The position numbers were made by a program, and so were the translations under genes. A DNA stretch of 49,673 bases from an uncultured Chlorobiaceae bacterium (lineage in GTDB: Bacteria; Bacteroidota; Chlorobiia; Chlorobiales; Chlorobiaceae). The notes under the pieces are model-generated. The model made no database searches. It worked only from the letters and a program-made list of their open reading frames with translations, and was not told the DNA's origin. Below, in pieces: positions 1 to 9,356 of the stretch. Numbering within the stretch: the first letter of the stretch is position 1; every line of letters starts with the position of its first letter. Where the stretch lies: the NCBI GenBank assembly GCA_903871235.1, contig CAIQGA010000122.1:1-49673 (forward strand), given 5' to 3'.

Positions 1-3000
1 CGCAAGGGTATTGCCGGTGCCATTGATAGCGGTATCCGTCAGTGTCAGGTTTTCGATATTGGCTCCCAACGTGTACGTTATACTGGACAGCACAGTATCA
101 GTACCTGCCGAAAAATCTTCAGTCACCACGTCACTGGTACTATCCACAACGTAAATATCATTACCCAAACCGCCGGTCATGCTGTCATTGCCTGCGCCGC
201 CATCAAGCGTATCGTTGCCAGCCTCACCCGTCATACGGTCATTTCCACCATAGCCGTAAATGAGGTCATCATTTGATGTTCCCAAAAGGGTATCATTGCC
301 CTCTGTGCCAGGAATAGTATGACTCTCCTCTGTTGTAAAATCGTAGGTTATGGTTCCTGCATAACTATTTCCAGCATAATCCTTAATCGAACCGGAAGTA
401 AAGGTCACAAAATAGTGAGTGCTGCACAGCAGGTTTGATGCAGGGTTGATGGACAGTGTGTTGCCGGATATCGTGAGGTTTGTGCTTGTTGCCGCATCAT
501 AGCTTTCAACAATCGTCCCATCAAATGAACCGCTGTGAATGGCGATAGTACCGGTTCCCTTCTTAATCGCTTCGCTGAAGGACAGCACAATGTCGATACC
601 CACTGGAACGTCAGTTGCACCATCGACAGGATTAGCGGAAATGAGATCTGGCGCTGTAACATCAGGAAAGTAATATGTTGACGACAGCCGTGCAACCCTT
701 ACATAATCAATATCAAAAAGATATGACGTATTATCTGCGGCTCTTGTAACCGGGTTAAGTGCTCCGCTGTAAGCTTCTATCCAATCTGGCCCTGGTGCCC
801 AGATGTTCAGGTGCAGTTGCATCGCATTCTGGGGAATATAATCTGCTTCCATACGGACCAACTCACCGTCAACAAACCATCGTACGGCATTTTGAAACCA
901 TTCGACCCGATAGAGGTGGTCTTCTGTTATAACTCCTTCAATGGAATTAAATTGGGGATGACCTGCGCCAAGAGGCTCATTAGCGTAGATGTTTGTCTGA
1001 ATCTGATCGGGTTTATTCGACAGCGCTTCAAAATCGATTTCGTCATGAAGGTTGCCCGGGTTGTTAGTGTAGCTGAACATGCCTCCGACAAGACCATCTA
1101 CCGGATTGACGAAATGAGCCTTGAACTCAAAAACAATACCACCCGTATAGTTTGAAAACGTCTGTTTGGTAATAGCTTCTGAGCCATAAAAAGAGGGCAC
1201 AGAACGGTTGCTGGGGTTGTAGGTATCAAGTTTAAGATGCAATTCTCCATCTGAAACAAGCGGAAGCTCAGCGCGCTGTTGAGTACGCCCGTAAAATGAG
1301 GGGTTTCCCACCGGGTAGGCCCAGATAGCCGAATTTAATTGAGTGTTGAAATCATCAACGAATAGAGTTTCTATCTCAACAATCGGTCCGTTTGTCGTAA
1401 AATCATACGCTGACCCGGCAAAATGATCCCCGGCAAGATTGTTGACCGAACCGGCATCAAGTGTAACGTAATAATGCGTACTATCCGCAAGATTTGCTGT
1501 TGGGTTGATTGTTAACTTATTCTCTGCAATTGAAAGATTTCCACTGGTTGCCACATCGTAACGTTCCACAACAGGACCGTTAACCGAACCACTGTGAAGC
1601 GCAATAGTGCCTGTACCTAACGTAATCGCTTCATTGAACTTCAGCACAATATTACTGCTGACATCAAATTCCGATGTCCCTTCGGGAGAGCTGATGGTAA
1701 GCACCGTTGGTGATGTCATCCCACCAGGATTTACCAGCACAGTTTGCAGACTGCTCACCGTCTCATAGTTCATCAGATTATCCCAATATCCTGCAACAAC
1801 CGTTATGTGCTTTCCGACCTCATTCTGGGTCAAGGTTATCGCAGTAGCACTATTTCCACCATTAATAGTGACACCATCAGCTTTCCATACATAAGTGGGT
1901 GCTGTATGAATACCATCCAAATCTTCCAGCTTATTGCTTGCCGTTAATACCGAGCCCTGAACAACGCTGCCGGTAATAAGAACAGTGCCCGTTGGCGCAT
2001 TATTGAACTCCAGGAATGTGTTTCCAGTAACACTTAAGGCCTCACCTGTACCCTGGTTCACCGTGTTACCCTCAGAAAATGTCCAGTCCATCTGCACGGT
2101 AGCTGTCGAATATTCGAAGTTGTTACTGTAAGCAATTTGCTGAAGTACAGAATCGACCAGGCTTTGCGTTGCATGGTCGTTGAAAGTGATCTTCAACAGC
2201 CCCTCGGAGTTGCTGTTGATAACACCAATTGCCGTACCTCCTATCGTGAGATTGCTCCCTTCGATCAACGCACCGAGAGAACCGAAATGTTTGGCAGAAA
2301 ACAGATCATTGTTATCAGCGCCACCATGACGTGACAGGGTAAGTGTTGCACCAGAATAGTTCCCACTCAGTGCAAGAGCTGCATCATAAATCTGGACATC
2401 ACGATCCAGCACAACTGGTATCCCATTTTTGGTATAGACATTGATGGCATCAAGAGAATTGATTTTGCCAAAATCAGTGTCCAGGCTTCCATCGCTGTTA
2501 TAACGCACAACAACAATATCACTGGTATTATACCCGTTTGTACTGGTATTGCGAATAACACTCCCCGACACAAGAATTTTGCCGTCGGATTGCACGGTCA
2601 TATCGGCGCCATAAGCATACTTCCATGTAGCATCAGAAATAGTTGTCGTAACTCTACCATCACCATCAAAGCTTTCATCCAGCGTACCATCTTTGTTATA
2701 ACGCACCAGAGCTATTTTCCATGTATCATTCCACTGGCCGCTGCCAGCAACAAGGATTTTACCATCGCTCTGGACGACAACACTAAACCCTTTGTCATAT
2801 TGAGTCAGGCCGGTAGTCACTTTTCCGTCACCATCAAAGCTTGTATCCGGTGTGCCATCGGGGTTATAGCGGGCCAAAGCGAAATCATACCGCCCTGCAT
2901 AATAAGCCAACCCGGCCACAAGAATTTTCATTTTTCCGTCATCAGGCTGAATGGTCACACTCTCTGCCGCGCTCCACCAATCATAGGAACCAGTAACAAA

Positions 3001-6000
3001 ATCAGTGATAAGCTTGCCATCGTCAGAAAACGTGGTGTCAGGTGTGCCATCTTGATTGTAACGTGCAACGGCAAAGTTGCGCATTTGAACATCAGTGGCA
3101 GTGAATCCTGCAACAAGTATCTTGCCATCAGATTGCACTACGAGGCTATTAGCGTGATCCAAACGTGTATTAAAATCCGTAGTTAACTTGCCATCATCAG
3201 AAAATGTGGTATCAGGAGTTCCGTCCATATTGAAACGCAAGACAACAATATCCTGATTGTTCCCCCCGGCTAACAGGATCTTACCGTCAACCTGTACAAC
3301 ACTCATGTACGCATAATAATGGTCGAGAATACCCGATGTATAGGCGGGAATATTCGTTGTTACTTTACCATCATCGGAAAAACTCGTATCCAACGTACCG
3401 TCAGGGTTATAACGGGCCAACGCAAAGCAAGAGTTAGATTTTCCTGCCGCCAGAATTTTGCCGTCACTTTGCATCGTCAGGCCAAAGCAATAATCCAAAC
3501 TACCAAAATCAGTCGTCAGTATGCCGTCACCGGAGAAGGTCTTATCAAGGCGCCCGTCAGCATTAAAGCGCGCCAACGCAAAATCACTTAACGCAAAATC
3601 ACTTTTAAAACCAGCGCAGCTTGATCCCGCGACAAGAATCTTTCCACCAGCCTGCAAAAAAATACTGGAACCTGTATCGCATAAGCTAAAATCTATGACA
3701 CTTTTCCCATAACCATTAATATTAAAGGTGGGTGCAAGAGGATCGTCGCTTGTGCCATTGATGGTTACGGTAACGGTCTGGTCAGCGTAAGCCCCGAACT
3801 CGTCCGTTACACGGGCTGTATAGCTATCGGTAACCGTTTCACCCTCAAAAAGCGCCTGTGTTGCAGCTTTGGTATCATCAAGCGTGTAGGTCCAGACTCC
3901 AGTGTTTGTATTGATGGCTATGCTGCCATAAGTGCTCGACGGCGTTGTGTCGGCAATGCTCCAACTCAGGGTTGCACCAGTATCAACATCAGTGGCCGTC
4001 AACTTGCCGCTGGCCGTAGCCAAACCGTCAACCCGATAGCCGGCCTCAGTTACCGATCCCTGACGAGTTTCCGCTGAATTCGTTACCACTGGCGCATCGT
4101 TCGTGCCATTGATGGTTATCGTTTCTGTGGTGGTCGGGTAGTCCGTGAAATTTGTTGAATTGTTGATCAGCACTGATACCGTACCGCTGCTCCAATTTGC
4201 AACAATCAGGTCAGGCTTGCCATCGCCGCTCACATCCGCACTCGTAACTGAACATGGATAAGATCCCGTCGCGTAATCCGCTCTGTCGGCAAAAATGCCA
4301 TCACCTTTGTTGAGCAGCACTGATACCGTCCAATCACTCCAATTAGCAACAATCAGGTCAGGCTTGCCATCGCCATTCACGTCCGCACTCGTGACTGAAT
4401 GTGGTCCATGTCCAGTAGCGTAATCGACTTTGTCGTCAAAAGCACCCTTATTACCATTGTTTAGCAGCACCGATACCGTATTGCTGCGGGAATTAGCAAC
4501 AATCAGGTCAGGCTTGCCATCGCCATTCACGTCTACACTCGTCACGGAATATGGAATCTCTCCTGTCGCATAGTCAACTTTTGCAGCAAAGTCGCCATAA
4601 CCGTTGTTTAGCAGTACTGATACCGTATTGCTATAATAATTAGCGACAATCAGGTCAGACTTGCCATCGTCGTTCACGTCTGCACTCGTAACTGAACATG
4701 GATAAGATCCCGTCGCGTAATCCGCTCTGTCGGCAAATGCACCGTCACCATCGTTTTTCAGCACCGTTACTGTATTGTTACCACCGTTAGCGACAATCAG
4801 GTCAGGCTTTTCGTCGCTGTTCACATCAGCAATCGTTACTGATCGAAAAGATCCCGTTGCGCATTCGACTGGCGTCGCGAAAGTACCGTCGCCATTGTTT
4901 TTTAGCACTGATACGGTACTGCTGTAAGCAACAATCAGGTCAGGCTTGCCGTCGCCGTTCACGTCTGCACTCGTCACTGACTCTGGACCATATCCCATCG
5001 CGTAGTCAACGTTATCTGCAAAGGTGCCATTGCCATTGTTTTTAAATACAGACACCGTATAGCTGCTGTTATTAGCAACAATCAAGTCAAGCTTGCCGTC
5101 GCCATCCACGTCCGCACTCGTCACTGACTCTGGAAGAGATCCTGTTGCATAGTCGACTTTGTCGGCAAAAGACATTTCTGCAATAGCAGCACGATCAAGA
5201 ACCTGATAAGAGACAACAATCGTTGTCTGTTCACCCTGCCCCATTGCATTATAAACAGCGCTTGAGGGGTCGATTGTGAGTATACTGCCATTCATTGTAA
5301 TGCTGGATAAAGCAAATAGCACACCATCAACGGTATAGGTTACACTTCCAACGCGAAGCATGTTTGTGAGGTCATCGTCATGGGCATTGGCCAGCAGGTC
5401 CAAGCTGACAGATGAGTCTCCTTCTGCCACTGTTGCAACAAGAGGGGCGGATACGCCGTGGATGGTTACGGTTATGGTCTGGTCAGCGTAAGCTCCAAAC
5501 TCGTCCGTTACCCTGGCGGTGTAGCTCTCGGTAGCGGTTTCGCCCTCATGAAGTGCCTGCGTTGCGGCTTTGGTATTGTCAAGCGTGTAGGACCAGACTC
5601 CAGTGTTTGCATTGATTGCTATGCTGCCATAAGTGCTTGCTGGCGTTGTGTCAGCAATACTCCACGTCTGGGTTGCACCAGTATCTGGGTCACTGGCCGT
5701 CAATGTGCCACTGGCCGTAGCCGAACCTTCGAGCAGATAACCGGCCTCTATTACAAAACCTTGCCGTGCTTTCGCTGAATTTGTTACAACAGGCGCATCG
5801 TTTGTGCCAAGGATAGTTATCGTTTCCGTGGTGGTCGGGTAGGCGGTGAAACTTGTTGAACTGTTCAGCAGCACCGATACCGCGCTGCTCTGATTAGCAA
5901 TAATCAGGTCAATCTTGCCGTCGCCATCCACGTCCGCACTCGTCACTGATTGTGGAGAATATCCCGTCGCATAGTCAACTTTCTTGGCAAAGGTGCCATC

Positions 6001-7683
6001 ACCTTTGTTTAGCAATACTGATACCGTATTGCTGAAATAATTAGCAACAATCAGGTCGGACTTGCCATCATCGTTCACGTCCGCACTTGCTACTGAATAT
6101 GGTCGAGTATAATAACCAGCTCCCGTCGGGTAGTCGGCTTTAGTGGCAAAAGTGCCATCGCCATTGTTCACCAGCACCGATACCGTATTGCCAATATAAT
6201 TAGCAACAATCAGGTCAAGCTTACTGTCGCCGGTCACGTCCGCACTCGTCACGGAAAGTGGTCCTTTTCCCGTCGGGTAGTCAACTTTCGTAGCGAAAGA
6301 ACCACACCCATTATTCACCAGCACCGATAACGTGTCGCTGCCCCAGTTAGCAGCAATCAAGTCAGGCTTGCCGTCGCCGGTCACGTCCGCACTCGTCACT
6401 GAACTTGGTTGAGATCCTGTCGCATAGTCGACTTTAGTGGCAAAGGTGCCATAACCATTGTTTTTCAATACCGACACCGTATTGCTGCTCTCATTAGCAA
6501 CAATCAGATCAGACTTACCGTCGCAGTTCACGTCCGCACTCGTCACTGACTCTGGCCAATATCCCGTCGCGTAGTCAACTTTATCGACAAACGTGCCTTT
6601 GCCATTGTTCACAAGCACCGACACCGTATTTCTGTTCCTGTTAGCAGCAATCAGGTCAAGCTTGCCGTCGCCGTTCACGTCCGCACTCGTGACGAAACTT
6701 GGATAAGATCCCGTAGCGTAATCAACTTTATCGGCAAACGTGCCATTGCCTTTGTTGAGCAGCACAGATACGCCAGAATTAACATTAACAACAATCAGAT
6801 CGGGCTTGCCGTCGCCATTCACGTCTGCACTTGTAACTGACGTTGGGTTAGATCCCGTCGCGTAATCCAATTTGGTGGCGAAAGACATTTCTGCAATAGC
6901 TGCACTATCAAGAACCTGATAGGAGACAACAATTGTTGTCTGTTCACCTTGCACCATTGAGTTATAAACACTGCTTGAAGGATCAATGCTGAGTGTATTA
7001 CCGTTCATTGTGATGCCGGACAAAGCAAATAGCACCCCATCAACGGTATAGGTTACAGTTCCAACACGGAGCGTGTCGGTAAGGTCGTCGTCATGGGCGT
7101 TGGCCAACAGGTCCAGGCTGATGAGGGACGAGTCTCCTTGTGTAACCGTTATTGCAAGAGGGCCTGATACTGTAGGGATACTGTTTGTCAACAGATAACC
7201 ATAGTCCGGCGCGTCTACCATTGCCGCTGGCTCCACTGTACCGGTCTGTACCTCCAGCACCCAGTCGCCGCCTGACGCTGTGCCGCCAGTAGGATCATCC
7301 GAAGCTGCAACATCGGCTCCGGTAATCTGAGACAGGGTTTCGATGAACTGCCGCCCTTGCTCGCCAGCGGCAACATTGCATCCATAAAGCAGCAGATCAC
7401 CAGTGCTGGTCAGAGCACTACCGATAAGCGCAAGTTGGATGGCATACAAGTCAAGAGTGGAATTGTTCAGCAGGGTTGAGCCAATGGTGAGGAAACCGGG
7501 GGCTCCATGCGAAATAATCTGTATGGAATCATAGCCACTATGCCCGGAGAGAGCCGTGACCATTTGATCAATGCCGTCCTGGTTTGCATCAAGCACCTGG
7601 TACTCAGTACTAAGCGCAAATTGTGAAATCAGAAGACCCTTGTCGTTGACGCGACTATCGATGAAGACTCTGGTTGTAGCCAT
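1..7683 (-). CDS. Giant multidomain RTX/VCBS surface protein with embedded GH16 domain (C-terminus beyond the window)
   Basis: The minus-strand frame from ATG at 7683 stays open to base 1 (2561 codons), so the gene continues off the left edge. Domains in order: DUF4347 (about residues 4-165, ending in GGDWVLE); cadherin-like segment (173-265); seven FG-GAP repeats with DVNGDGKPDL-type calcium loops (265-615); VCBS domain (615-742); a second cadherin-like/7x FG-GAP/VCBS set (745-1310); seven delta-60 repeats (1323-1731, SDGKILVAG); Ig-like and Big_5-like domains (about 1899-2095); a GH16 glycosidase-like domain (2106-2332) with E2215, D2217 and E2219 in E-I-D-F-E; another Big_5-like domain (2339-2448); RTX nonapeptides (GGAGNDSMTGG type) to the edge. 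There is no classical signal peptide, and RTX proteins of this build usually leave by a type I secretion system; none is encoded nearby. Likely role (inference): extracellular adhesin or cell-surface glycan-active protein. No clear Shine-Dalgarno sequence precedes the ATG. Confidence 0.93.
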   Translation of the reverse strand, partial: MATTRVFIDSRVNDKGLLISQFALSTEYQVLDANQDGIDQMVTALSGHSGYDSIQIISHGAPGFLTIGSTLLNNSTLDLYAIQLALIGSALTSTGDLLLYGCNVAAGEQGRQFIETLSQITGADVAASDDPTGGTASGGDWVLEVQTGTVEPAAMVDAPDYGYLLTNSIPTVSGPLAITVTQGDSSLISLDLLANAHDDDLTDTLRVGTVTYTVDGVLFALSGITMNGNTLSIDPSSSVYNSMVQGEQTTIVVSYQVLDSAAIAEMSFATKLDYATGSNPTSVTSADVNGDGKPDLIVVNVNSGVSVLLNKGNGTFADKVDYATGSYPSFVTSADVNGDGKLDLIAANRNRNTVSVLVNNGKGTFVDKVDYATGYWPESVTSADVNCDGKSDLIVANESSNTVSVLKNNGYGTFATKVDYATGSQPSSVTSADVTGDGKPDLIAANWGSDTLSVLVNNGCGSFATKVDYPTGKGPLSVTSADVTGDSKLDLIVANYIGNTVSVLVNNGDGTFATKADYPTGAGYYTRPYSVASADVNDDGKSDLIVANYFSNTVSVLLNKGDGTFAKKVDYATGYSPQSVTSADVDGDGKIDLIIANQSSAVSVLLNSSTSFTAYPTTTETITILGTNDAPVVTNSAKARQGFVIEAGYLLEGSATASGTLTASDPDTGATQTWSIADTTPASTYGSIAINANTGVWSYTLDNTKAATQALHEGETATESYTARVTDEFGAYADQTITVTIHGVSAPLVATVAEGDSSVSLDLLANAHDDDLTNMLRVGSVTYTVDGVLFALSSITMNGSILTIDPSSAVYNAMGQGEQTTIVVSYQVLDRAAIAEMSFADKVDYATGSLPESVTSADVDGDGKLDLIVANNSSYTVSVFKNNGNGTFADNVDYAMGYGPESVTSADVNGDGKPDLIVAYSSTVSVLKNNGDGTFATPVECATGSFRSVTIADVNSDEKPDLIVANGGNNTVTVLKNDGDGAFADRADYATGSYPCSVTSADVNDDGKSDLIVANYYSNTVSVLLNNGYGDFAAKVDYATGEIPYSVTSVDVNGDGKPDLIVANSRSNTVSVLLNNGNKGAFDDKVDYATGHGPHSVTSADVNGDGKPDLIVANWSDWTVSVLLNKGDGIFADRADYATGSYPCSVTSADVSGDGKPDLIVANWSSGTVSVLINNSTNFTDYPTTTETITINGTNDAPVVTNSAETRQGSVTEAGYRVDGLATASGKLTATDVDTGATLSWSIADTTPSSTYGSIAINTNTGVWTYTLDDTKAATQALFEGETVTDSYTARVTDEFGAYADQTVTVTINGTSDDPLAPTFNINGYGKSVIDFSLCDTGSSIFLQAGGKILVAGSSCAGFKSDFALSDFALARFNADGRLDKTFSGDGILTTDFGSLDYCFGLTMQSDGKILAAGKSNSCFALARYNPDGTLDTSFSDDGKVTTNIPAYTSGILDHYYAYMSVVQVDGKILLAGGNNQDIVVLRFNMDGTPDTTFSDDGKLTTDFNTRLDHANSLVVQSDGKILVAGFTATDVQMRNFAVARYNQDGTPDTTFSDDGKLITDFVTGSYDWWSAAESVTIQPDDGKMKILVAGLAYYAGRYDFALARYNPDGTPDTSFDGDGKVTTGLTQYDKGFSVVVQSDGKILVAGSGQWNDTWKIALVRYNKDGTLDESFDGDGRVTTTISDATWKYAYGADMTVQSDGKILVSGSVIRNTSTNGYNTSDIVVVRYNSDGSLDTDFGKINSLDAINVYTKNGIPVVLDRDVQIYDAALALSGNYSGATLTLSRHGGADNNDLFSAKHFGSLGALIEGSNLTIGGTAIGVINSNSEGLLKITFNDHATQSLVDSVLQQIAYSNNFEYSTATVQMDWTFSEGNTVNQGTGEALSVTGNTFLEFNNAPTGTVLITGSVVQGSVLTASNKLEDLDGIHTAPTYVWKADGVTINGGNSATAITLTQNEVGKHITVVAGYWDNLMNYETVSSLQTVLVNPGGMTSPTVLTISSPEGTSEFDVSSNIVLKFNEAITLGTGTIALHSGSVNGPVVERYDVATSGNLSIAENKLTINPTANLADSTHYYVTLDAGSVNNLAGDHFAGSAYDFTTNGPIVEIETLFVDDFNTQLNSAIWAYPVGNPSFYGRTQQRAELPLVSDGELHLKLDTYNPSNRSVPSFYGSEAITKQTFSNYTGGIVFEFKAHFVNPVDGLVGGMFSYTNNPGNLHDEIDFEALSNKPDQIQTNIYANEPLGAGHPQFNSIEGVITEDHLYRVEWFQNAVRWFVDGELVRMEADYIPQNAMQLHLNIWAPGPDWIEAYSGALNPVTRAADNTSYLFDIDYVRVARLSSTYYFPDVTAPDLISANPVDGATDVPVGIDIVLSFSEAIKKGTGTIAIHSGSFDGTIVESYDAATSTNLTISGNTLSINPASNLLCSTHYFVTFTSGSIKDYAGNSYAGTITYDFTTEESHTIPGTEGNDTLLGTSNDDLIYGYGGNDRMTGEAGNDTLDGGAGNDSMTGGLGNDIYVVDSTSDVVTEDFSAGTDTVLSSITYTLGANIENLTLTDTAINGTGNTLA
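690..1368 (-). other. Glycoside hydrolase family 16-like domain inside the giant protein
   Basis: Residues about 2106-2332. The segment opens with LFVDDFN and contains HDEIDFEAL at 1027-1041, which matches the GH16 nucleophile/acid-base motif E-x-D-x-E with both glutamates and the aspartate present. The flanking hallmarks of the jelly-roll fold are also visible: GGIVFEFKAHF, HLYRVEWFQNAVRWFVDG, and a closing YLFDIDYVRV strand. GH16 enzymes cut beta-1,3 or beta-1,4 glucans or galactans; the substrate cannot be read from the sequence. Confidence 0.8.
2490..3715 (-). repeat. Seven delta-60 repeats within the giant protein
   Basis: Seven units of roughly 55-60 residues carry the pattern SDGKILVAG ... 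FALARYNPDGTLDTSF ... DGKVTT, the signature of the delta-60 repeat family (TIGR02608). Seven such units would suit a beta-propeller; that fold is an inference. Confidence 0.85.
3754..5451 (-). repeat. Internal 1.71-kb module, copy 2
   Basis: Residues about 745-1310 of the giant protein, running from APLVATVAEGDSS to VTVTING. It again holds one cadherin-like segment, seven FG-GAP units and one VCBS domain. Units 4 and 7 of this copy share DRADYATGSYPCSVTSADV almost base for base, pointing to recent unit duplication or gene conversion inside the copy. Confidence 0.85.
5455..7167 (-). repeat. Internal 1.71-kb module, copy 1 (cadherin-like, 7x FG-GAP, VCBS)
   Basis: Residues about 173-743 of the giant protein. 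The module begins at SGPLAITVTQGDSS and ends at ITVTIHG. The same domain order with near-identical boundary sequences recurs immediately downstream, offset by about 1716 bp (for example TYTVDGVLFALS and TNDAPVVTNSA occur in both). Each FG-GAP unit is about 48 residues (D-Y-A-T-G ... SVTSADVNGDGK ... VSVLLNNGDGTF). Confidence 0.85.
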
Positions 7684-8153
7684 GATCGTTGTATGGTTTG
7701 GTTGCTCAAAATGTTGCGCTCACCTGCCAACAAACAAACAGCAATACCACCCAATGAGCGGAAAGGAAACTTTATTCCAATTATTAATACGACGCAAGCC
7801 CGACTGCACAGTATTACACCAAAACCAGTTAAATCATACAGTGAGCCTGAAAAAAAACAAATATCACATTTCACAAATGTAGCACCAATACTACAATTTT
7901 TTCAAAAAAAACACATAAAGAACAATCCATTTGGCTTTTTTATTTAATCGAAAATGAATCTTATTGACTACGTCATGCAACCAAACGGCTCTACCAAGAG
8001 ACTTTTTGTAAGGAAAAATCAATTAATTGGGCAACAGGAGGGACAGTAATCAGCAGGAACAGAAACAGATAGATTGGGGTATTTGCGGGATGAATGTGAA
8101 TATTTCGGACGCCATTGTGGGGACACGCAAGAACATGCCCCCACAAATTTCAT
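7684..8153. other. Intergenic region upstream of the giant gene
   Basis: 470 bp, AT-rich, no credible gene. It should hold the promoter of the giant minus-strand gene. A small inverted repeat TGTAG-N8-CTACA lies at 7878-7895 within runs of A/T, a possible operator but too short to call. The right end carries the stem-loop listed separately. Confidence 0.5.
8115..8146 (-). terminator. Stem-loop just downstream of alaC
   Basis: TTGTGGGG at 8115-8122 pairs perfectly with CCCCACAA at 8139-8146 around a 16-nt loop, beginning 8 nt after the aminotransferase stop codon. There is no T-tract on the minus strand after the stem, so it is a poor intrinsic terminator and may instead stabilise the 3' end of the mRNA. 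Confidence 0.4.
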
Positions 8154-9356
8154 TTATTCACGCAGGAATTTTTTAATATTCCGCGCAGCCTGCCGAATCC
8201 GCTCCTCATTCTCAATCATGGCGACACGCACATACTCATCACCGTAGGCGCCGAATCCTATGCCGGGACTGACGGCGACTTTTGCTTCAGTAAGCAGTTT
8301 CTTGCTGAACTCAAGGCTTCCCATGGCGCGGAAGGGTTCTGGAATCCGGGCCCAGACGAACATGCTTGCCCTTGGAGTTACCACCGGCCAGCCTGCGTTG
8401 ATAAAACTTTTAACCATGACATCACGCCGTTTGCGATAGACCTCGCAGATCTCCTGAACGCAGCTCTGGTCTTCGGTGAGGGCAATGGTTGAGGCAACCT
8501 GAATGGGGGTGAAGGTACCGTAATCGAGCCAACTCTTGATTTTTTCGAGGGCGCCGATCAGTTTGGCGTTTCCAACCATGAACCCGACACGCCATCCGGC
8601 CATGTTGTAGGTTTTTGAGAGGGTGTAGCTCTCGACGGCAACATCCTTTGCTCCGGGTACCTGAAGGATTGAGGGGGTGACGTAGCCATCATAAGTCAGT
8701 TCGGCGTAGGCAATGTCACTGATAATATAAAAGCGCTCCTGACGGGCAATATCGACCAGCTTCTGATAAAAAGGAAGCTCGACAGTGGCCGTGGTAGGAT
8801 TGTTGGGGAAATTCACCACCAGATACTTGGGCTTTGGCGACGATTCGCGCAGTGCTTTTTCTATGTTTGCAAAAAAGCCCTCTTCGTCAAGGGTAAAATC
8901 GTCGTTCAGTTCCAGTTTCAGGCGATGGACGTTGCCGCCGGCAAGAATGAATGCCTGGGAGTGAATGGGATAACAGGGATCGGGCACCATGGCAAGATCA
9001 CCGGGATTGGTGATGGCCTGCACAAGGTGAACATAACCCTCTTTTGAGCCCATCGTTGCCACAACCTCGCGATCAAGGTCAAGGTCTACATTATACTTTC
9101 GCTTGTACCAGGTTCCCACCGCACCACGAAGCTTGTAAATTCCCTTTGAAACGGAATAGCCGTGAGTCCTCGGTTTATTGATGCTTTCAATCAGTTTATC
9201 GACAATGTGCTGAGGTGTCGGGCCATCAGGATTACCCATCGAAAAATCAATAACATCCTCTCCGGCACGCCGTTCAGCCATTTTCAGCTCATTGACTGCA
9301 GCAAAGACATACTTGGGCAAACGCTTGATCTTGTCAAACTCTATTTCATCAAACAT
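8154..9356 (-). CDS. alaC: AlaC-type alanine/class I aminotransferase
   Basis: PLP-dependent fold-type I aminotransferase of about 400 residues. It closely follows the E. coli AlaC (YfdZ) pattern along its whole length: IDFSMGNPDGPTP near the N-terminus, HGYSVSKGI, the pyridoxal lysine in TLSKTYNMAGWRVGF, DYGTFTPIQVA, and AKVAVSPGIGFG near the C-terminus. It most likely transfers amino groups between alanine/pyruvate and glutamate/2-oxoglutarate; related proteins are sometimes annotated as LL-diaminopimelate aminotransferases, so the substrate is less sure than the family. I chose ATG at 9356 (MFDEIEFDKIKRL), since the open frame upstream codes for a non-homologous hydrophobic stretch. It is divergent from the hdr-flox operon, with about 450 bp between. 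Confidence 0.85.
   Translation of the reverse strand: MFDEIEFDKIKRLPKYVFAAVNELKMAERRAGEDVIDFSMGNPDGPTPQHIVDKLIESINKPRTHGYSVSKGIYKLRGAVGTWYKRKYNVDLDLDREVVATMGSKEGYVHLVQAITNPGDLAMVPDPCYPIHSQAFILAGGNVHRLKLELNDDFTLDEEGFFANIEKALRESSPKPKYLVVNFPNNPTTATVELPFYQKLVDIARQERFYIISDIAYAELTYDGYVTPSILQVPGAKDVAVESYTLSKTYNMAGWRVGFMVGNAKLIGALEKIKSWLDYGTFTPIQVASTIALTEDQSCVQEICEVYRKRRDVMVKSFINAGWPVVTPRASMFVWARIPEPFRAMGSLEFSKKLLTEAKVAVSPGIGFGAYGDEYVRVAMIENEERIRQAARNIKKFLRE

What the first reader, a model, noticed from the sequence alone, without database searches (positions are those of the whole stretch)
690..1368. GH16 glycosidase domain built into a giant RTX/FG-GAP surface protein
The protein combines structural repeats with a domain that has the complete GH16 motif E-I-D-F-E (E2215, D2217, E2219). 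An adhesin carrying its own endo-glycanase could remodel extracellular polysaccharide of its own or a partner cell. Green sulfur bacteria live in consortia and aggregates where giant surface proteins have been suspected in cell-cell contact; this one would be an enzyme as well.
Basis: partly seen in the sequence, partly recalled or inferred. Interest (0 to 1): 0.72.

Follow-up and report, generated by a model that had tools for sequence, protein, structure and literature searches.

The report
Secreted green-sulfur-bacterium polysaccharide-cutting enzyme (GH16)
A very large, probably exported protein of a green sulfur bacterium carries a real, probably active sugar-polymer-cutting domain of a known type; it looks like a patchwork-built variant of secreted slime-trimming enzymes known from other bacteria.

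Summary
Observation confirmed. Window 691-1368(-) encodes residues 2106-2331 of an ORF of at least 2561 aa that runs off the contig. The stretch is a true GH16 domain (PF00722 63.8 bits, cut-off 22). Its predicted fold matches lichenases (3i4i: Z 25.9, rmsd 2.7, 211 aligned). E2215, D2217 and E2219 are invariant in 14 of 14 aligned domains and dN/dS is 0.09-0.21 in 4 of 4 pairs, so it is probably active.

It is of the EXDXE (lichenase-like) class, so laminarin and agarose are poor substrate guesses. Eleven of 86 family genomes hold 13 full-length copies: 7 in compact 422-805-aa proteins, 6 in proteins of 1096 aa or more. One module, many carriers. The nearest outside relatives are compact alphaproteobacterial RTX/DUF4214 proteins. 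Type-I-exported glycanases are already known in rhizobia.

Verdict: new variant of a known kind; most likely a type-I-exported endo-beta-glycanase trimming extracellular polysaccharide. Adhesion and consortium roles are untested. The most novel open reading: the N-terminal DUF4347 domain (invariant His59/Cys102) is a cysteine protease, making this a two-enzyme giant.

The parts
691..1368 (-). GH16 catalytic domain, residues 2106-2331
   Evidence: PF00722 63.8 bits; AF2 pLDDT 85.5; lichenase fold Z 25.9
1027..1041 (-). catalytic strand E2215-I-D2217-F-E2219 (EXDXE)
   Evidence: E, D, E invariant 14 of 14
1..7683 (-). giant ORF, at least 2561 aa, C-terminus off the contig
7213..7668 (-). DUF4347 domain, residues 6-157; His59 (7507-7509), Cys102 (7378-7380)
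   Evidence: PF14252 175.9 bits; H59, G60, C102 invariant 15 of 15
5863..6888 (-). first FG-GAP repeat block (limits set by motif, by eye)
   Evidence: PF13517/PF01839
5452..5802 (-). first VCBS/cadherin-like domain (limits by eye)
   Evidence: TIGR01965 and PF17803, 2 stretches each
4162..5175 (-). second FG-GAP repeat block (limits set by motif, by eye)
   Evidence: PF13517/PF01839
3751..4101 (-). second VCBS/cadherin-like domain (limits by eye)
   Evidence: TIGR01965, PF17803
2455..3732 (-). delta-60 (DUF5122) repeats (limits by eye)
   Evidence: TIGR02608 360.5 bits, PF17164
1390..1716 (-). Big_5 Ig-like domain before GH16 (limits by eye)
   Evidence: PF13205, 2 stretches
331..663 (-). Big_5 Ig-like domain after GH16, residues 2341-2451
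   Evidence: PF13205
1..309 (-). start of RTX calcium-binding repeats, cut by contig end
   Evidence: PF00353
328..3693 (-). core block shared with the G083a protein (81.3% aa over 1108 codons)

Best explanation
This is a calcium-binding, type-I-exported, multidomain endo-beta-glycanase. Shown: a lichenase-like GH16 domain with a conserved catalytic strand sits between two Ig-like domains; repeat domains lie upstream and RTX repeats downstream; the same GH16 module occurs in many different carriers in the family. Inferred: an ABC-HlyD-outer-membrane channel exports the chain, calcium folds the RTX and Ig parts outside, and the GH16 domain cuts beta-linked extracellular polysaccharide by the retaining mechanism (E2215 nucleophile, E2219 acid/base, D2217 helper; roles by alignment to lichenase). 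The likeliest substrate is polysaccharide of the cell itself or its close neighbours, as with rhizobial ExoK/ExsH/PlyA, not a food glycan. The repeats act as spacer or retention parts that hold the enzyme near the cell.
For: GH16. Catalytic residues invariant 14 of 14. dN/dS 0.205, 0.197, 0.092, 0.213 in 4 of 4 GH16 pairs. RTX repeats in the window and in the same-site G054 protein, complete at 805 aa. One gene set in the genome has an RTX protein, ABC transporter, HlyD (TIGR01843 291.1, cut-off 208.65) and outer-membrane efflux protein. In G066 and G037 the GH16 gene lies near family-2 glycosyltransferase and Acyl_transf_3 genes. A 2002-aa GH16-RTX protein lies among sulfotransferase and glycosyltransferase genes on a Rhodobacteraceae plasmid. 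All 5 alphaproteobacterial relatives scanned carry RTX, DUF4214 or both.
Against: No activity was tested. The C-terminus is unread. In the window no polysaccharide genes were seen among the 10 ORFs scanned between 8154 and 22570 (the rest of the window was not scanned). The neighbours of only 2 of the 11 carrier genomes were Pfam-scanned, and these two were picked because they looked like sugar genes by eye, so that support is selected; by eye the neighbours of G063, G032 and G054 are not sugar genes. The GH16 pairs are less constrained (0.09-0.21) than the three flanking genes (0.024-0.065). The genome's best ABC hit is under the LssB cut-off (525.9 against 693.1) and its outer-membrane protein under the type-I TolC cut-off (173.7 against 225.15). 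Lichenase Trp103 is His here (13 of 14 rows His, 1 Asp). BglS and ExoK equivalog cut-offs are far from met.
Confidence: 0.55

Rival explanations
1. The protein is mainly an adhesin and the GH16 domain is a substrate-binding (lectin-like) part whose catalysis matters little.
For: Giant repeat architecture with FG-GAP, cadherin-like and RTX parts; green sulfur bacterial giants have been proposed as contact proteins (PMC4053972, passages).
Against: All three catalytic acids invariant in 14 of 14 rows, even where one copy reads EIDSE; the module also occurs in compact 422-558-aa proteins without a giant scaffold.
Confidence: 0.17
2. It is a digestive or offensive enzyme that opens beta-glucans of algae, or the sheath or capsule of neighbouring cells.
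For: Fold and profile closest to lichenases.
Against: Green sulfur bacteria are photoautotrophs (general knowledge); the 10 window ORFs scanned include no sugar uptake system or other glycanase; two relatives, picked by eye, sit near polysaccharide-making genes.
Confidence: 0.22
3. The fusion is an assembly chimera: a compact GH16 gene joined by error to a repeat protein.
For: The ORF ends at a contig end inside repeats; the genome is in 234 contigs with 3.96% contamination.
Against: Another assembly (G083, contig CAJEXI010000002.1) has the same delta-60 to Big_5-GH16-Big_5 core over 1108 codons at 81.3% identity; long fusions also occur in G063 and G078.
Confidence: 0.03

Closest known systems
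Bacterial licheninases (GH16_21; e.g. Bacillus 1GBG, 3O5S)
   Same: Best fold and profile matches; EXDXE strand; Phe92, Tyr94 and Trp192 equivalents kept (F103, Y105, W201 of the modelled domain).
   Different: About 25% identity; Trp103 replaced by His; inside a giant repeat protein; BglS equivalog cut-off not met.
Rhizobial ExoK, ExsH, PlyA/PlyB, RL2412 and EglC glycanases
   Same: Glycanases, several exported by the type I system PrsDE, that cut the cell's own polysaccharide (PMC2275737 and PMC4916376, passages). RL2412 combines limited glycosyl-hydrolase similarity with RTX motifs. NCBIfam EglC matches only the RTX part of relative L029, below its cut-off; that EglC and ExsH are GH16 is recalled.
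   Different: ExoK only 27.9% identical and on a very long branch; PlyA and PlyB are called non-RTX in PMC3034196 (passage); DUF4347, FG-GAP and delta-60 parts are not described for them in the passages I saw.
Alphaproteobacterial GH16-RTX/DUF4214 proteins (Microvirga L006, Rhodospirillales MAG L007)
   Same: Nearest relatives of this GH16 module outside the family, 53% and 41% identity.
   Different: Compact: open frames of 438-767 aa among those listed.
Giant RTX proteins of green sulfur bacteria (Cag_0614/Cag_0616)
   Same: Giant repeat-rich style; DUF4347 was found in 36 of 98 order genomes.
   Different: This GH16 is in 13 of 86 family genomes, and the Cag giants are described as adhesin-like; I did not examine their sequences.

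Membership tests
GH16 (PF00722) | Profile match above curated cut-off | tested here: met
   63.8 bits against 22
GH16 (PF00722) | GH16 fold with catalytic E-x-D-x(1-2)-E strand | tested here: met
   Z 25.9, rmsd 2.7, 211 aligned to 3i4i; motif on predicted strand 112-121, aligned with DEIDIE of 1gbg. Cleft coordinates not inspected
GH16 (PF00722) | Retaining glycanase activity | not testable with these tools
   needs assay
GH16_21 licheninase | EXDXE strand (no beta-bulge) | tested here: met
   EIDFE; class split from PMC6827312 passages
GH16_21 licheninase | Aromatic cleft residues Tyr24, Phe92, Tyr94, Trp103, Trp192 (1GBG) | tested here: not met
   Phe92, Tyr94, Trp192 kept; Trp103 is His; Tyr24 not clearly alignable
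NCBIfam BglS / ExoK equivalogs | Curated cut-offs 300 and 350 bits | tested here: not met
   71.1 and 52.9 bits (scored within the whole 2561-aa protein)
RTX type I secretion substrate | RTX nonapeptide repeats | tested here: met
   PF00353 46.2 bits, cut-off 23
RTX type I secretion substrate | C-terminal secretion signal | tested here: inconclusive
   C-terminus off the contig; the complete same-site relative L029 has RTX repeats
RTX type I secretion substrate | Exporter (ABC, HlyD, outer-membrane channel) in genome | tested here: inconclusive
   C224 gene set: HlyD over its type I cut-off, ABC and TolC-like proteins below theirs; link to this protein not shown
LapA/RTX adhesin | N-terminal retention module or known ligand-binding domain | tested here: inconclusive
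   none named in Pfam/NCBIfam scans; N-terminus is DUF4347; absence does not exclude
DUF4347 putative cysteine protease (Tce1-like) | Conserved His and Cys dyad | tested here: met
   H59 and C102 invariant 15 of 15
DUF4347 putative cysteine protease (Tce1-like) | Same fold as Tce1 (9qpe_G) | tested here: inconclusive
   model pLDDT 64.1; 9qpe_G is Foldseek rank 15 behind 14 methyltransferase-type rows; profile E 0.59

The most novel reading that the evidence does not exclude
The giant protein is a two-enzyme machine. DUF4347 at its N-terminus is a C80-like cysteine protease (His59/Cys102) that processes the exported chain, releasing or arming the GH16 glycanase. The GH16 module is a cassette exchanged at fixed chromosomal sites, so that related strains carry different polysaccharide-cutting specificities in the same place.
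Probability: 0.2. Interest if true: 0.65.

Novelty: new variant of a known kind. Interest (0 to 1): 0.42.

Why it matters
If active, it gives green sulfur bacteria a concrete enzyme for shaping the matrix between cells, testable with one recombinant domain. It also suggests that at least some of their giant exported proteins are modular enzymes, not only adhesins. Exchange of the GH16 module between carriers, and its apparently non-orthologous forms at one chromosomal site, would link polysaccharide variation to strain differences.

Tried and rejected
C-terminus: I looked for the rest of the ORF on 9 other contigs of the genome that carry RTX repeats or a transporter. No exact end overlap of 15 bases or more with the window end was found at 14 of 14 contig ends tested, but no two of the tested ends overlapped at all, so the test says little. 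C188 and C208 have open RTX frames running in from a contig end but could not be linked; one neighbour gene expected from G054 was not found in the genome. Left unresolved.

Cohesin/dockerin-like tail of the G063/G083 giants: my reading by eye (it stands in my notes); Pfam and NCBIfam gave 0 families for the 314-aa tail of L026, so not claimed.

No C80 or caspase chain was among the rows shown, which does not exclude it. NCBIfam EglC as a GH16 match: rejected, it hits RTX repeats only and also an RTX tail without GH16; my note says otherwise and is corrected here.

Viral collection: GH16 and DUF4347 searches gave 0 relatives among the pattern hits.

Rows left out: G073 (GH8-GH16, L035) and G062 (50-aa fragment) were hits but not aligned. 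A2 has 12 of the 13 full-length family copies plus L006 and L007; the G078 copy, near-identical to G063's, is in A1 instead and also has EIDFE. From the tree I dropped L093 and L094 (same loci as L006, L007) and L096 (distant); further hits without a locus were not used; 26 rows kept.

Literature: full-text searches 'GH16, RTX, type I secretion, endoglycanase' (2 papers, neither opened), 'green sulfur bacteria, GH16' (2 papers, neither opened) and 'green sulfur bacteria, exopolysaccharide, glycoside hydrolase, Chlorobi' (15 of 31 listed, none opened) showed no title on a green sulfur bacterial GH16 giant. (giant adhesins with glycoside hydrolase, 12 of 31 listed) was not opened either. Subscription papers are mostly not held, so I do not claim that nothing is in print. 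Passages only were seen of PMC3034196, PMC4053972, PMC6827312, PMC8262886, PMC13323088, PMC4916376 and PMC2275737; all others as search listings.

Full report
What is there. The window is one whole contig (G000:C122, 49673 bp) of a 3.3-Mb genome in 234 contigs. The ORF 1..7683(-) codes for at least 2561 aa and is open at the contig end. From N to C it reads DUF4347, FG-GAP block, VCBS/cadherin-like, FG-GAP block, VCBS/cadherin-like, delta-60 repeats, a stretch without a named domain, Big_5, GH16, Big_5, RTX.

Is the GH16 domain real and intact? PF00722 scores 63.8 bits against a cut-off of 22. The nearest solved structures by profile are lichenases (E 7.8e-21 for 1gbg; carrageenase 5.9e-8, laminarinase 1.7e-6). 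The AF2 model (8 rows, pLDDT 85.5, pTM 0.85) aligns best with lichenases: 3i4i Z 25.9, rmsd 2.7, 211 aligned; 1gbg Z 25.2, 2.5, 207. Laminarinases follow at Z 23, so the fold alone does not pick the subfamily; the sequence leans to lichenases. The strand motif is EXDXE, which the GH16 roadmap uses to divide these enzymes from the bulged EXDXXE types (PMC6827312 passages; which enzymes are in the bulged group is partly recalled). E115, D117 and E119 of the domain (E2215, D2217, E2219) are invariant in 14 of 14 rows, 12 family copies and 2 alphaproteobacterial. Equivalents of lichenase Phe92, Tyr94 and Trp192 are kept; Trp103 is His in 13 of 14 rows and Asp in 1. dN/dS is 0.205, 0.197, 0.092 and 0.213 in 4 of 4 GH16 pairs (Nei-Gojobori): purifying selection, though weaker than in the three flanking genes compared (0.024-0.065).

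Who else has it? In 86 family genomes, 13 (the window's own included) match at E <= 0.001. Two of these are not full relatives: G062 is a 50-aa fragment at a contig end, and G073 is a distant GH8-GH16 protein. The other 11 genomes hold 13 full-length copies, 3 of them in G083. In 296 genomes drawn from the phylum, 10 match at E <= 1e-30, all of one genus of 139; G018, of a second genus, matched but is not among these. In 119 genomes of the Microvirga family, 8 match at E <= 1e-40. In the tree of 26 domains the 13 family copies form one clade (98/100); the alphaproteobacterial RTX/DUF4214 rows are the nearest, with their own branching unresolved, and ExoK is far off on a very long branch (midpoint root, for drawing only). 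The patchy distribution suggests transfer between the groups; direction was not tested.

Carriers differ while the module stays. Of the 13 family copies 11 are complete: 422, 438, 447, 448, 502, 558, 805, 1096, 1443, 1446 and 1928 aa. Two are cut by contig ends: G078 (1785 aa so far) and the window (2561 aa so far). Tails after the GH16 are RTX (G052; with Ig-like domains in the window; G054 with the Ig-like domain before the GH16), DUF4214 (G066, G075, G037), or Ig-like domains with no further Pfam match (G063, three in G083, G032, G018) (the G078 protein was not scanned). The window shares a 1108-codon core (delta-60 to Big_5-GH16-Big_5) with G083a at 81.3% aa identity, but the two differ on both sides of it. 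G032's 558-aa protein looks like the start of the delta-60 region joined directly to GH16, in a site that by eye has the same flanking transporter and PIN-like genes as G063's.

One chromosomal site, two GH16 forms. The window gene and the G054 gene (L029) lie near the same genes: aminotransferase 96.7%, 502-aa and 656-aa redox proteins 95.4% and 98.8% aa. In G054 about 2.8 kb with other ORFs, among them an aminotransferase fragment, lies in between; in the window about 0.5 kb. Yet their GH16 domains are 65.7% identical with dS 1.12, against dS 0.28-0.43 for the three neighbour genes. The window's GH16 is closer to G083a (81.8%, dS 0.48; tree 95/94). So the two copies at this site are probably not simple orthologues; replacement or exchange is the simplest reading. 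A dS above 1 is rough, and only one site and one pair were measured.

Export. RTX repeats begin after the second Ig-like domain. The complete same-site relative L029 has RTX repeats. The genome has an RTX protein followed by ABC, HlyD and outer-membrane efflux genes on C224; the HlyD is over its type I cut-off, the ABC and outer-membrane proteins are under theirs. No join between the window ORF and any other contig could be shown.

What does it do? Rhizobia export glycanases through PrsDE that cut their own polysaccharide (PMC2275737 passages), and ExoK/ExsH cannot cut unsuccinylated succinoglycan (PMC4916376 passage). In G066 and G037 the GH16 gene is near glycosyltransferase-2 and Acyl_transf_3 genes, the broad type that ExoH belongs to (recalled); on CP050561.1 exoH lies next to exoK. 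These are 2 of 11 carrier genomes and were picked by eye; the others' neighbours were not scanned. A Rhodobacteraceae plasmid has a 2002-aa GH16-RTX-GDSL protein among sulfotransferase and glycosyltransferase genes. By analogy I favour trimming of extracellular polysaccharide. The window's own neighbourhood does not show this: the 10 ORFs scanned between 8154 and 22570 are an aminotransferase, five iron-sulfur/flavin/NAD redox proteins, a MurB-like protein, an AAA/DUF4143 protein, one without a match and an IPP transferase.

DUF4347. His59, Gly60 and Cys102 are invariant in 15 of 15 domains. A 2026 paper describes Tce1 (PA0256) as a putative cysteine protease effector with a His/Cys dyad (PMC13323088 passages); PA0256 was earlier noted to contain DUF4347 (PMC8262886 passage), and the PDB chain 9qpe_G bears that name. 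In the passages, Tce1 itself did not affect yeast growth and its protease activity is unproven. My model of the window's domain is too poor to support the fold. DUF4347 occurs in 36 of 98 order genomes, with 29 matches in G083. A proteolytic function in these giants is a lead, not a result.

Novelty. A 2010 review counted about 20 predicted polysaccharide- or saccharide-degrading RTX proteins (PMC3034196 passage), and green sulfur giants were proposed to stabilise cell contacts (PMC4053972 passages). What seems new is the combination of parts and the module swapping, so I file it as a new variant of a known kind.

Noticed in passing
window 7213-7668 (-): DUF4347 has invariant His59 and Cys102 in 15 of 15 domains; a DUF4347 protein (Tce1) was recently described as a putative cysteine protease. 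Found in 36 of 98 order genomes.
   Followed up: partly
window 676-1383 against L029:9549-10286: The same chromosomal region in a close relative carries a GH16 module of much older divergence (dS 1.12) than three neighbouring genes (dS 0.28-0.43).
   Followed up: partly
L071 (G000:C224) 1-8283: RTX protein with a weak C39-like peptidase match (22.1 bits, cut-off 24), followed by ABC, HlyD and outer-membrane genes: a likely type I export set.
   Followed up: partly
L107:7123-13131 (CP081162.1): 2002-aa GH16-RTX-GDSL protein inside a polysaccharide gene cluster of a Rhodobacteraceae plasmid, with a second GH16 gene nearby.
   Followed up: no
L035:15614-17875 (G073): 754-aa protein fusing GH8 and a distant GH16.
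   Followed up: no
L023/L024 (G083:C2): Three GH16 genes of 1096-1446 aa within about 24 kb, and 29 DUF4347 matches in the same genome; one GH16 copy reads EIDSE.
   Followed up: partly
L076 (G000:C159:1997-2485): A DUF4347 match interrupted by one in-frame TAA.
   Followed up: no
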